The position numbers were made by a program, and so were the translations under genes. Under the pieces are notes generated by a model, which did no database searches, was not told where the DNA came from, and worked only from the letters and a program-made list of their open reading frames with translations. A DNA stretch of 64,000 bases from Bacteroidota bacterium (GTDB taxonomy: Bacteria > Bacteroidota > Bacteroidia > NS11-12g > UBA955): the NCBI GenBank assembly GCA_016868785.1, contig VGFS01000005.1, positions 1 through 64,000 of the forward strand, given 5' to 3'. Positions 62 to 1,967 of the stretch are shown one piece after another; the first letter of the stretch is position 1, and the number at the start of each line of letters is the position of its first letter.

Positions 62-168
62 ACTAACAGCGCCTACCACTTATGCGTGCCGACAACAAAG
101 CATTTGCAAAAGTTTCGGCAGACAATTGTTTCAAAACGCACAAGTGGTAGCTGCAAACCGTTAGTGGC
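62..168 (+). repeat. attC-like fold-back element 1
   Basis: The outer pair is ACTAAC (62-67) and GTTAGT (160-165). The inner pair is a 15-bp arm, CTACCACTTATGCGT (73-87) against ACGCACAAGTGGTAG (136-150), with one mismatch. Short unequal spacers separate the outer and inner arms (5 nt left, 9 nt right), like the unpaired central spacer of integron attC sites. A further arm pair TGCCGA/TCGGCA (87-92 and 115-120) lies inside. The right end reads ACCGTTAGTGGC followed by CATTAAAT, and is repeated at element 3. The core boxes depart from the classical GTTRRRY consensus, so attC-like is an inference from architecture. Confidence 0.6.
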
Positions 169-197
169 CATTAAATAGGTTAGCTTAATTTGTTCAG

Positions 198-205
198 TAT
201 ATTTG
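198..205 (+). promoter_or_regulatory. TAnnTTTG -7 box inside a cassette without an ORF
   Basis: TATATTTG matches the Bacteroidota -7 box exactly. It lies in the roughly 120-bp segment between elements 1 and 2, which holds no ORF, and points toward the CAP gene. A transcript from here would carry element 2 as a structured 5' leader before the ATG at 320. No -33 element is convincing. Confidence 0.45.
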
Positions 206-291
206 AAAATAATACGCTACTGAGTAGCGCCAATACACTCAAAAAGGTGTTATTGGCGATATAAAGTAGCGGGTATAGGCAAGTTATGGGC
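206..291 (+). repeat. attC-like fold-back element 2
   Basis: Inner arms are CGCTACT (215-221) with AGTAGCG (265-271), and GCCAATACAC (229-238) with GTGTTATTGGC (247-257). The second pair leaves one unpaired base in the right arm, like the extrahelical bases that orient attC recombination. The right box is GTTATGGGC (283-291). The left box is poor: only ATAA (209-212) pairs with TTAT. The right box resembles the complement of the left box of element 3 (CCCATAAC), as expected when neighbouring cassettes share a core site. Confidence 0.5.
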
Positions 292-319
292 AAGTACAAC
301 AGACATTAAAAAAAATATT

Positions 320-871
320 ATGAGATTAAAAAGAATTCTAATTAGCTTTTGTTTAATACTAACTTCAATAATTTCATATTCTCAAGTATTAACTGACGAA
401 GAAAGAAAATTATACAATATTATCATGCAATACAGAAAAGAGAAAGGCCTGCCTAATATTCCATTATCTACTTCTTTAACTTACGTTGCACAAACCCATG
501 TCAGTGATTTAGCTAATAATAAGCCAGATATTGGAAATTGTAATGCTCATAGCTGGTCTTCAAATGGCCCTTGGACGGCATGTTGTTATACCCCAGATCA
601 TGCGCAAGCAAAGTGTATGTGGTCTAAACCTCGTGAACTTACAACATACAAAGGAGATGGTTTTGAAATAGCTTGCGGGTCTAATGGATGTTGTAGTGAC
701 TTTGTAATGACAGCAAATTATGCTTTGGAATCATGGAAAGAAAGTTCAGGACACAATGCAGTAATTATTAATCAAGGCATTTGGGATGATAATAATTGGA
801 ATGCAATCGGAATTGGACTGTTCAAAGGCTTTGCAGTTGTCTGGTTTGGAAAAGAAATTGATAATGAATAA
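320..871 (+). CDS. Secreted CAP-domain (CRISP/SCP-like) protein
   Basis: A 183-aa protein with an N-terminal signal peptide (basic MRLKR, hydrophobic stretch, cleavage probably after SYS near residue 21). The rest fits the CAP superfamily (cysteine-rich secretory/SCP/PR-1 fold). A helical DEERKLYNIIMQYRKEKGLP start carries the usual N-terminal CAP helix, CNAHSW supplies a conserved histidine, and SWKESSGHNAVI corresponds to the conserved SxHN segment. The end GLFKGFAVVWFGK fits the last beta strand. Several cysteines suggest disulfides. The gene sits between two attC-like elements, with its stop 6 nt before the third, like a cassette gene. It is visibly more A+T-rich than the genes after 2.3 kb. 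The molecular function is unknown; family assignment is fairly secure. Confidence 0.8.
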   Translation: MRLKRILISFCLILTSIISYSQVLTDEERKLYNIIMQYRKEKGLPNIPLSTSLTYVAQTHVSDLANNKPDIGNCNAHSWSSNGPWTACCYTPDHAQAKCMWSKPRELTTYKGDGFEIACGSNGCCSDFVMTANYALESWKESSGHNAVIINQGIWDDNNWNAIGIGLFKGFAVVWFGKEIDNE

Positions 872-877
872 AACCAG

Positions 878-968
878 CCCATAACAGCGTGTAAGCAATA
901 TTGCCTTGCCGTCCCGATGTTTCGGGACAACACAAGGCAACATCGCCTACACGCCAACCGTTAGTGGC
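878..968 (+). repeat. attC-like fold-back element 3
   Basis: Left box CCCATAAC (878-885) and right box GTTAGTGGC (960-968) enclose L boxes GCGTGTA (887-893) and TACACGC (948-954). TTGCCTTG (901-908) pairs with CAAGGCAA (933-940), and GTCCCGA (911-917) pairs perfectly with TCGGGAC (922-928) around a TGTT loop. The left spacer is 1 nt and the right 5 nt, again an asymmetric unpaired region. The right end repeats that of element 1 almost exactly (ACCGTTAGTGGC, then AATTAAAT instead of CATTAAAT), 800 bp downstream. This is the best-formed element of the array. Confidence 0.65.
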
Positions 969-986
969 AATTAAATTTTAAATGAC

Positions 987-1670
987 ATGAAAAAAACACC
1001 AACTCCCAGAACATTTAATGAATATGTTCAATATTGGGAAAAATGGCATAAACAATGGTGGGCTTACAAATCAGGAAGTTTTATGGAGTGGCCAAAGCCA
1101 AATGGTAATGGTGGGCATAAAGACCTGCTAAGACTGCACTCTAGCCCTATTATTGATTTTTACCCTGAACCATACTACTATAGATTTTCCAACAATATAC
1201 CTAATACAATTGATGCCATATTCATTAATATAAACCCAGCGGCCGGTGGCCCTACTCAGTTTAAATTGAATAGCACTAGCCCTTTAATTTCGAGTTATTG
1301 TGCAAATGGGAATAGCTACCAAAAGTCACTTACAGACCTTTTAAACTTAAAGGGAGGCCCGAATAGTTTTCTAAATCATCGCGAAAAAAGAACACGGGAA
1401 TTATTAGAAAAAAATAGTGCTGACAATGTGCAAGTTCTTTGCGTAGACTTAGTTCCTTGGCATACAGCGAACCAAACAGATATTCATCAATACATAATTG
1501 ATAATTCATCGTTGATTATGGATTATGTTATAAAACCGCTCACACGTATTTCAAATAACGAAGTAAGTGGCCCCTTGGCAAAAAAAATTTTAATTCGAGG
1601 AACATCCTTCAGGAACGTTATTAATGCGATAGGGCTGAAAATTCTCCATCTTCTGTTAGGAATAGGGTAA
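987..1670 (+). CDS. Hypothetical cassette protein, 227 aa
   Basis: I do not recognise the family with confidence. The protein is soluble, without a signal peptide or membrane segments. It starts with an aromatic-rich region (WEKWHKQWWAY), then has a beta-strand motif IFININPAAGG near residues 79-89 and a second strand VLCVDLVPWHT near 150-160. The hydrophobic strand ending in NxNP and the later strand with a polar tip are loosely reminiscent of uracil-DNA-glycosylase-like folds, but this is only an impression. The start is 18 nt after attC-like element 3. The last 16 codons overlap a reverse ORF, and the C-terminus after RGTSFRNVINA becomes low-complexity hydrophobic. That could mean the original 3' end was lost when foreign DNA joined here. 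Confidence 0.6.
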   Translation: MKKTPTPRTFNEYVQYWEKWHKQWWAYKSGSFMEWPKPNGNGGHKDLLRLHSSPIIDFYPEPYYYRFSNNIPNTIDAIFININPAAGGPTQFKLNSTSPLISSYCANGNSYQKSLTDLLNLKGGPNSFLNHREKRTRELLEKNSADNVQVLCVDLVPWHTANQTDIHQYIIDNSSLIMDYVIKPLTRISNNEVSGPLAKKILIRGTSFRNVINAIGLKILHLLLGIG

Positions 1671-1815
1671 GGTTTTCATTGTTTGCAAACTGGTCGCAAT
1701 TATTATTTATATGATTTGTTAAAGGTTCTATTGAAAGTAAAAAGTTGTTATCGAAGTTGTCGTCAATCATAAATGACATACTGTTCTTCCATTCCTCAAA
1801 TGATATTTTATCCAT
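1621..1815 (-). CDS. Possible small hypothetical protein, 64 aa
   Basis: A reverse-strand ORF with an ATG start. It has an acidic, asparagine-rich composition (SFEEWKNSMSF near the start, LFLTEDGEFSALSH at the end) that looks protein-like rather than random. It is not recognised. Its 3' end overlaps the end of the preceding forward gene by 50 bp, so at least one of the two 3' ends may be abnormal. If the flanking elements are attC sites, this would be an antisense-oriented cassette gene, which is uncommon but known. Confidence 0.35.
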   Translation of the reverse strand: MDKISFEEWKNSMSFMIDDNFDNNFLLSIEPLTNHINNNCDQFANNENLTLFLTEDGEFSALSH

Positions 1816-1884
1816 ATTTCGTTTTTCGCAAATTTAATTTTTTAATTCTGTTATTCTCGGGTTATGCTCGGTTTTAATATGGCT

Positions 1885-1967
1885 GGTAACTTACCTATTG
1901 GCGCAACAAAGTTGCACATATTTTCTTGTAGGGTGGATTTATTGTGCAACTTGTATTACCAGTTATC
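1885..1967 (+). repeat. attC-like fold-back element 4 (weaker)
   Basis: Arms ACAAAGTTGCACA (1906-1918) and TTGTGCAACTTGT (1942-1954) pair with one extra A left unpaired. Flanking GGTAAC (1885-1890) faces GTTATC (1962-1967), and the wider CTGGTAA/TTACCAG (1883-1889 and 1956-1962) is also complementary. The outer boxes do not pair perfectly, and the right-end sequence differs from elements 1 and 3. It may be a degenerate array end or an unrelated hairpin. It lies about 50 bp from the tRNA-Arg gene. Confidence 0.4.

What the first reader, a model, noticed from the sequence alone, without database searches (positions are those of the whole stretch)
62..1967. attC-like cassette array beside a tRNA gene in a Bacteroidota genome
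Four fold-back elements flank small, A+T-rich genes. Each has outer TAAC/GTTA-type boxes, inner complementary boxes, unequal unpaired spacers and a variable stem-loop. Elements 1 and 3 end in an almost identical 20-bp sequence (positions about 158-176 and 958-976) that is placed where an integron core site would be. Genes end 2-6 nt before the left boxes. All elements have the same orientation. No integrase gene is in the window, so this may be a cluster of attC sites lacking an integrase or the tail of an integron that begins to the left. The core boxes differ from the usual GTTRRRY.
Basis: partly seen in the sequence, partly recalled or inferred. Interest (0 to 1): 0.78.

Follow-up and report, generated by a model that had tools for sequence, protein, structure and literature searches.

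The report
Integrase-less integron of Bacteroidota type
This stretch is a small gene-capture platform (an integron) that has lost its own enzyme, and it belongs to an integron family, found throughout its bacterial class, whose enzyme lacks the part thought essential for integron integrases.

Summary
Elements 1 (59-168) and 3 (877-968) are genuine attC sites: a covariance model trained only on other genomes finds these two and nothing else in 64 kb (E 9.1e-8, 8.6e-10). Element 2 is not an attC; it is the attI insertion site with its promoter (198-291), ranking first of 2,511 GTT sites. Element 4 is not supported.

The contig end is bridged by an exact 127-bp overlap with contig C14. This shows a complete, roughly 2.8-kb integrase-less integron with two identical promoter-attI units, each followed by one cassette and attC, between an esterase gene and tRNA-Arg. 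Congeners lack it there.

In related genomes the same attC sites form arrays beside a tyrosine recombinase. The attI lies 72-138 bp after that gene's stop in 14 of 20 loci, matching the first cassette's ends exactly. This recombinase lacks the IntI-specific insert (spacing 89-90 residues versus 131 in IntI). Canonical IntI scored over cut-off in 0 of 147 relatives, while 111 of 147 carry attC matches. Plasmids and many viral contigs carry the same system. Recombination is inferred, not shown. I found no published description, but only open-access papers were searchable.

The parts
59..168 (+). attC site E1, end of cassette A (R'' AGTACTAAC 59-67, R' GTTAGTGGC 160-168)
   Evidence: R1 covariance model 44.1 bits, E 9.1e-8; R'' is the exact reverse complement of GTTAGTACT at the start of cassette A on C14; folds better on the bottom strand
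198..205 (+). putative cassette promoter Pc, Bacteroidota -7 motif TAnnTTTG (TATATTTG)
   Evidence: Motif found within 60 nt after the integrase stop in 11 of 30 related loci, shuffled mean 0.8, maximum 4; consensus from general knowledge, function inferred
   Evidence: Position matrix from 26 attI sites of relatives ranks it 1 of 2,511 GTT sites, 13.8 against next 9.75; 183-286 identical to C14:771-874; R' GTTATGGGC 283-291 is the exact reverse complement of E3's R''
284..960 (+). cassette B (677 bp)
   Evidence: Bounded by G^TT of attI and of attC E3 with complementary core boxes
320..871 (+). Cassette B gene: 183-aa protein with apparent signal peptide and CAP domain
   Evidence: Pfam PF00188, E 1.6e-6; signal peptide judged by eye
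877..968 (+). attC site E3, end of cassette B (R'' GCCCATAAC 877-885, R' GTTAGTGGC 960-968)
   Evidence: R1 covariance model 53.5 bits, E 8.6e-10; 79% identical over window 875-987 to an attC at the start of contig G013:C25 in the same genus, followed there by a different cassette
987..1670 (+). Gene C: 227-aa Brig1-like DNA glycosylase, last cassette without a recognisable attC, or right flank
   Evidence: NCBIfam NF047634 anti-phage DNA glycosylase Brig1, E 2.8e-10, 40 bits, far below its cut-off of 230
1883..1962 (.).
   Evidence: No hit to R1 up to E 10; fold z -1.8 to -2.2
2020..2094 (-). tRNA-Arg(cct), about 77% identical to the congeners' gene
   Evidence: ARAGORN; blastn against 11 congeners
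2252..2304 (-). Remnant of the native tRNA-Arg 5' half and its upstream flank
   Evidence: 90-95% identical to intact tRNA-Arg genes at the same place in congeners

Best explanation
The window holds most of a small integron that has lost its integrase. Read with the overlapping contig C14, the order is: esterase gene, promoter + attI copy 1, cassette A (cation-efflux-like membrane protein), attC E1, promoter + attI copy 2, cassette B (CAP protein), attC E3, Brig1-like glycosylase gene, tRNA-Arg. It belongs to an integron family widespread in this class of Bacteroidota, usually encoded with an IntI-like tyrosine recombinase lacking the IntI-specific insert. Inferred working: the recombinase binds the folded bottom strand of attC in an excised circular cassette and joins it at G^TT of attI, so each cassette enters behind the promoter and is expressed. 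At this locus that could happen only with an integrase supplied from elsewhere. Shown here: the anatomy, conserved structure, attI placement, cassette-end complementarity and linkage to the recombinase. Inferred: catalysis, strand choice, promoter activity.
For: attC: R1 finds only E1 and E3 in the window; all 16 stem pairs in 41 related sites show compensatory change. Cassette signature: R' of one site complements R'' of the next in at least 8 of 9 positions for 50 of 65 adjacent pairs, against 31 of 398 non-adjacent pairs. attI: exact complementary 9-mer 72-138 bp after the integrase stop in 14 of 20 arrays (chance about 3e-4 per locus), conserved leader. Linkage: attC within the fetched flanks (up to 20 kb loci) in 25 of 40 loci picked by integrase score, 0 of 14 XerC/D loci. 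Insert absent: spacing between catalytic Arg and H.LRH 89-90 (37 of 38) against 131 in IntI (13 of 13); alignment to VchIntIA (PDB 2A3V) skips its residues 180-241. Canonical IntI over cut-off in 0 of 147 relatives, while 111 of 147 have attC matches. Locus structure: C14 overlap and attI duplicate; site lacks attC in 11 congeners.
Against: No recombination was observed. In a minority of loci the integrase diverges from the array or the array lies upstream of it, so gene arrangement varies. The integrases form several branches around IntI rather than one clade. The locus has no integrase, so function here depends on one in trans that was not found. The C14-C5 join rests on a 127-bp overlap in a draft assembly. 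Only 8 of the 20 integrase loci that did not help train the model had attC hits (p 0.011), although several of those contigs end beside the integrase.
Confidence: 0.85

Rival explanations
1. Ordinary CALIN: degenerate canonical integron cassettes placed by a canonical IntI acting in trans; the neighbouring recombinases in relatives are incidental.
For: CALINs are common and often lack a nearby intI (PMC9024848, PMC9668308). attC anatomy is as in canonical integrons.
Against: No canonical IntI over cut-off in 147 relatives; in a phylum-wide sample 84 of 297 genomes have it but only one of those listed is in this class. attI lies at a near-fixed distance from the other recombinase in 14 of 20 loci, which an incidental neighbour would not explain.
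Confidence: 0.08
2. Dispersed intergenic hairpin repeats or terminators with no role in recombination.
For: E2 and E4 alone could be read as hairpins.
Against: Stem covariation, chained complementarity of neighbouring core boxes, one-directional arrays with one or a few genes between sites, different cassettes behind near-identical attC ends in one genus, none near XerC/D loci.
Confidence: 0.02
3. Assembly artefact: E1 and attI copy 2 were joined wrongly, and a normal integrase-bearing integron exists in the organism.
For: The contig breaks inside E1 with an exact 127-bp overlap, typical of a de Bruijn graph node; attC and attI repeats disturb assemblies.
Against: Only two contigs share the 127-bp end; the 104-bp attI repeat is shorter than the overlap; cassette A and E1 core boxes match across the join; no such integrase in 2.07 Mb rated 100% complete.
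Confidence: 0.07
4. The arrays are moved by the housekeeping XerC/XerD system, and the linked recombinases belong to other mobile elements.
For: XerC/D are the only tyrosine recombinases in this genome.
Against: No attC near 14 XerC/D loci; attI follows the linked recombinase. XerC/D normally act on double-stranded dif (general knowledge).
Confidence: 0.04

Closest known systems
Canonical integrons with IntI (TIGR02249), attI and attC
   Same: Folded attC with R and L boxes and bottom-strand bias, GTT cut point, complementary cassette ends, attI beside the integrase, cassette promoter; integrases group with IntI and away from XerC/D in the tree
   Different: Integrase lacks the roughly 41-residue IntI insert and scores 208.6 against a cut-off of 265; in most loci attI lies downstream of a co-directional integrase instead of upstream of a divergent one; core box conserved only as GTT
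[quoted passage not shown] IntegronFinder, PMC9024848)
   Same: Two attC sites in a short distance with no integrase
   Different: This locus keeps two complete promoter-attI units; its relatives would be called CALIN only because their integrase is not recognised as IntI
Integron-like subgroup of tyrosine recombinases (PMC8138268)
   Different: In the passages read it does not link insert-less members to attC arrays or attI sites
NCBIfam NF040815 (XerA-type 'site-specific tyrosine recombinase/integron integrase')
   Same: The Chryseobacterium plasmid enzyme and its relative in G022 score above this cut-off, 221.5 and 228.1 vs 220
   Different: The family is named for archaeal XerA, a dif recombinase (general knowledge); no cassette system is described by the name
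Phage integrons (PMC9892861)
   Same: Integrons or attC clusters on phage genomes
   Different: The complete phage integrons detailed in the passages read carry intI-type integrases; the viral contigs here carry the insert-less type

Membership tests
Integron (platform) | attC sites with imperfect paired R and L boxes, unpaired bases, variable tip | tested here: met
   E1 and E3 by covariance model, 16 covarying stem pairs in relatives
Integron (platform) | Bottom strand of attC folds preferentially | tested here: met
   E3 -31.8 vs -22.4, E1 -22.3 vs -18.7 kcal/mol (computed folding only)
Integron (platform) | Cassettes bounded by complementary core and inverse core sites | tested here: met
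   Cassette A and cassette B exact 9/9; 50 of 65 adjacent pairs in relatives at 8/9 or more
Integron (platform) | attI site where the first cassette is inserted | tested here: met
   copy 1 on C14
Integron (platform) | Cassette promoter Pc | tested here: inconclusive
   TAnnTTTG motif at 198-205 and in 11 of 30 related loci; activity not measured
Integron (platform) | Core site GTTRRRY | tested here: not met
   GTTAGTGGC and GTTATGGGC; among 41 related sites only CGTT is invariant on this side
Integron (platform) | Integrase gene intI beside attI | tested here: not met
   None in locus or assembly except XerC/D
IntI integron integrase (enzyme of the related arrays) | Additional domain near patch III | tested here: not met
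   Arg to H.LRH spacing 89-90 against 131 in 13 IntI; gap against VchIntIA
IntI integron integrase (enzyme of the related arrays) | TIGR02249 score over 265 bits | tested here: not met
   208.6, 206.7 and 168.4 bits; 0 of 147 genomes over cut-off
IntI integron integrase (enzyme of the related arrays) | Catalyses attC x attI recombination | not testable with these tools
   Needs a recombination assay
CALIN | At least two attC sites within a few kb and no integron integrase | tested here: met
   E1 and E3 about 0.8 kb apart, no integrase

The most novel reading that the evidence does not exclude
Bacteroidia carry their own widespread class of integron, run by an IntI-like recombinase that recombines folded attC sites without the additional domain held to be necessary, with attI usually at the 3' end of a co-directional integrase gene, and spread also on plasmids and phages; standard tools miss it or report it as integrase-less.
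Probability: 0.7. Interest if true: 0.87.

Novelty: new variant of a known kind. Interest (0 to 1): 0.77.

Why it matters
The additional domain is treated as the hallmark of integron integrases and as necessary for their activity on attC (PMC9668308 and its citation of Messier and Roy 2001; PMC8138268), and search tools depend on recognising IntI. A survey reports only one complete integron in Bacteroidetes proper, in Salinibacter (PMC9024848). If arrays across Bacteroidia are run by an insert-less enzyme, the estimate of where integrons live changes, a large pool of mobile cassettes is uncounted, and how a recombinase recognises a folded attC without that domain becomes directly testable. It also bears on whether IntI gained the domain from an insert-less integron integrase.

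Tried and rejected
Elements 2 and 4 as attC: rejected by the covariance model. Pattern scan of genome contigs with the shared right end: two hits, one inside a coding gene of a Porticoccus MAG (chance), one in Niastella without a hairpin; it led nowhere. The 13-base pattern in 197 relatives was not enriched over its reversed control and only some hits were attC; arrays were found by reading those hits. Rfam gave nothing useful. Tail of a truncated integron whose integrase lies beyond the contig end: rejected after C14 was found to overlap and carry no integrase. A HARP-like N-terminal domain as the replacement for the IntI insert: only weak Pfam hits (HARP E 0.11, DUF5710 E 0.0078 to 0.14), and recombinases on viral contigs that lack this domain also sit beside attC arrays, so it is at most accessory. 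Two named Bacteroidota phages with a related integrase (Polaribacter phage Leef_1, Cellulophaga phage Ingeline_1) showed at most one weak attC match. attC counts are lower bounds, since at most 22 candidates per genome were scored.

Full report
What was checked. The window is the first 64 kb of contig C5 (79 kb) of a 2.07-Mb, 79-contig draft genome rated 100% complete.

Two of the four are attC sites. A hairpin scan requiring AAC, inner arms and GTT scores elements 1 and 3 at 18.0 and 19.5; five dinucleotide shuffles of the whole window gave nothing at 15 or more. A covariance model, R1, built from 41 elements of other genomes, finds exactly two matches in the window up to E 10: 877-968 (53.5 bits, E 8.6e-10) and 59-168 (44.1 bits, E 9.1e-8). 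All 16 stem pairs of R1 show compensatory changes, so structure rather than sequence is kept. Both window sites fold more stably on the bottom strand. Element 4 (1883-1962) matches nothing and folds little better than shuffled sequence.

Element 2 is the attI site. In related loci the recombinase gene that precedes an array is followed, 72-138 bp after its stop codon, by a 9-mer GTTxxxxxx that is the exact reverse complement of the left box of the first attC: 14 of 20 arrays examined, where chance gives about 3e-4 per locus. That is where the first cassette's two ends meet, hence attI. The leader between stop codon and GTT carries inverted repeats and ends in a TATAAAC.A-like sequence before GTT. 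A position matrix from 26 such leaders, none from the window, puts the GTT at 283 first of 2,511 GTT sites on both strands of the window (13.8 against 9.75 for the next). The box there, GTTATGGGC, is the exact reverse complement of GCCCATAAC of element 3, so 284-960 is one cassette, inserted at attI and ended by attC E3. A TAnnTTTG motif, the Bacteroidota -7 promoter box (general knowledge), lies at 198-205; it also occurs within 60 nt of the integrase stop in 11 of 30 related loci, shuffled mean 0.8.

The locus is whole and has no integrase. The native left neighbour of this site in a congener, an esterase gene, is on contig C14 of this genome. The end of C14 is identical to window 1-127 on the opposite strand, and no third contig shares it. 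Reading through this overlap gives: esterase gene; a second promoter-attI copy identical to window 183-286 over 104 bp; cassette A with a 217-aa cation-efflux-like protein (Pfam PF01545, E 6.5e-10), whose start box GTTAGTACT is the exact complement of E1's left box; attC E1; attI copy 2; cassette B with a CAP-domain protein; attC E3; gene C, resembling the anti-phage DNA glycosylase Brig1 (E 2.8e-10 but only 40 bits); tRNA-Arg(cct). No integrase lies in this stretch, and the assembly holds only XerC and XerD. In 11 congeners the tRNA-Arg lies directly beside the glycosyltransferase gene and no attC is found there. In the window the native tRNA survives as a 5' remnant (2252-2304, 90-95% identical) beside a diverged intact copy (2020-2094). 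The insert spans about 2.8 kb.

What the family looks like elsewhere. Related genomes carry long one-directional arrays with one or a few genes between attC sites. Adjacent sites are chained: the right box of one complements the left box of the next in 8 or 9 of 9 positions in 50 of 65 pairs, against 31 of 398 for non-adjacent pairs in the same arrays (Fisher p 4e-32). In the same genus, contig G013:C25 starts with an attC 79% identical to window 875-987 but followed by a different cassette. R1 matches were found in 111 of 147 relatives.

Which enzyme. Forty loci chosen by similarity of a tyrosine recombinase to IntI, not by attC content, held attC matches in 25 cases; 14 loci around XerC/XerD held none even at E 0.1 (p 2.5e-5; counting only the 20 loci fetched after the model was built, 8 of 20, p 0.011). 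Most of these recombinases are co-directional with, and upstream of, the array. A second type, found in the window's genus (G009, locus L062), is divergent with attI before its start codon, again with an exact box match. They carry SAM-like and phage-integrase domains. They lack the IntI insert: the spacing from catalytic Arg to H.LRH is 89-90 in 37 of 38, 131 in all 13 canonical IntI, 95-97 in nearly all XerC/D, and the alignment to VchIntIA skips residues 180-241 of the latter. They fall below the TIGR02249 cut-off (208.6, 206.7 and 168.4 against 265). In a quick tree they lie with IntI and apart from XerC/D (support 99), IntI being a clade (100) among several insert-less lineages. Canonical IntI over cut-off is absent from 147 relatives; across the phylum 84 of 297 genomes have it, of which one listed genome is in this class.

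Named records. The plasmid of Chryseobacterium sp. SNU WT5 (NZ_CP041688) carries the recombinase followed by attC sites. A related plasmid of C. oryzae carries the recombinase with the same attI leader.

What is known. IntegronFinder 2.0 describes the extra domain as the way to tell IntI from other recombinases and reports one complete integron in Bacteroidetes, in Salinibacter (PMC9024848). The archaeal integron paper calls the domain IntI-specific and necessary (PMC9668308). [quoted passage not shown] Seven literature searches found no description of integrons with an insert-less integrase in Bacteroidia; only open-access papers could be searched, so novelty of the family is probable, not proven.

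How it works, step by step. Shown by sequence: folded attC sites, attI, complementary cassette ends, linkage to a recombinase with its catalytic residues, absence of the insert. Inferred: the recombinase cuts the bottom strand of a folded attC at G^TT and joins it to attI; the promoter drives the first cassette. At the window's locus the integrase is gone, so further capture or excision would need an enzyme supplied in trans. The identical attI duplication suggests a recent duplication; how it arose is not known.

Limits. Draft genomes, unnamed by the tools; the phylum is inferred from relatives on named plasmids. Array ends often coincide with contig ends, so linkage is probably underestimated. 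No experiment was possible.

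Noticed in passing
L134, L154, L189, L208 and others among L131-L210 (IMG/VR contigs): Viral contigs carry arrays of up to about 13 attC sites (196 R1 hits in 80 loci) beside a shorter insert-less recombinase, with attI mostly 28-130 bp before the recombinase match. Most genes there run against the attC orientation, opposite to bacterial cassettes. Neighbours include DnaB-like helicase, exonuclease and a weak virion structural protein match.
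   Followed up: partly
window 183-286 and L261:771-874 (-): The promoter-attI unit is present twice, 104 of 104 bp identical, each with one cassette and attC ending in nearly the same 20 bp; the cause of the duplication is unknown.
   Followed up: partly
L053:8657, L082:28003, L085:14268 and 18320: Several attC sites begin TAGTTCAAC beside IS91-type recombinase genes, as if IS91-like elements insert at the left box of attC.
   Followed up: no
L081:20762-22078: A group II intron reverse transcriptase lies inside the cassette region of the Chryseobacterium plasmid, recalling group IIC-attC introns (general knowledge).
   Followed up: no
A2 columns 25-86; L073, L062, L077 and others: Many of the recombinases have an extra N-terminal domain of about 65 residues with a KWSxxxKxWxxP pattern, faintly similar to HARP and DUF5710.
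   Followed up: partly
L062, L061, L076, L075 versus L054, L068, L073, L116: Two gene arrangements exist: recombinase divergent from the array with attI at its 5' side, and recombinase co-directional with attI at its 3' side.
   Followed up: partly
attI right sides, for example L057, L078, L116; L062: Many first cassettes start with a similar leader, roughly AAnTTTAAAAnCGACA about 10-25 nt right of the cut; its role is unknown.
   Followed up: no
window 2020-2304: tRNA-Arg(cct) is a diverged intact copy beside the remnant of the native gene, suggesting tRNA replacement at the insertion.
   Followed up: partly
Many relatives, for example G013:C25, G034:C3, G175:C31: Contigs of draft genomes often start or end inside attC sites, so integron arrays are probably under-assembled in this class.
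   Followed up: no
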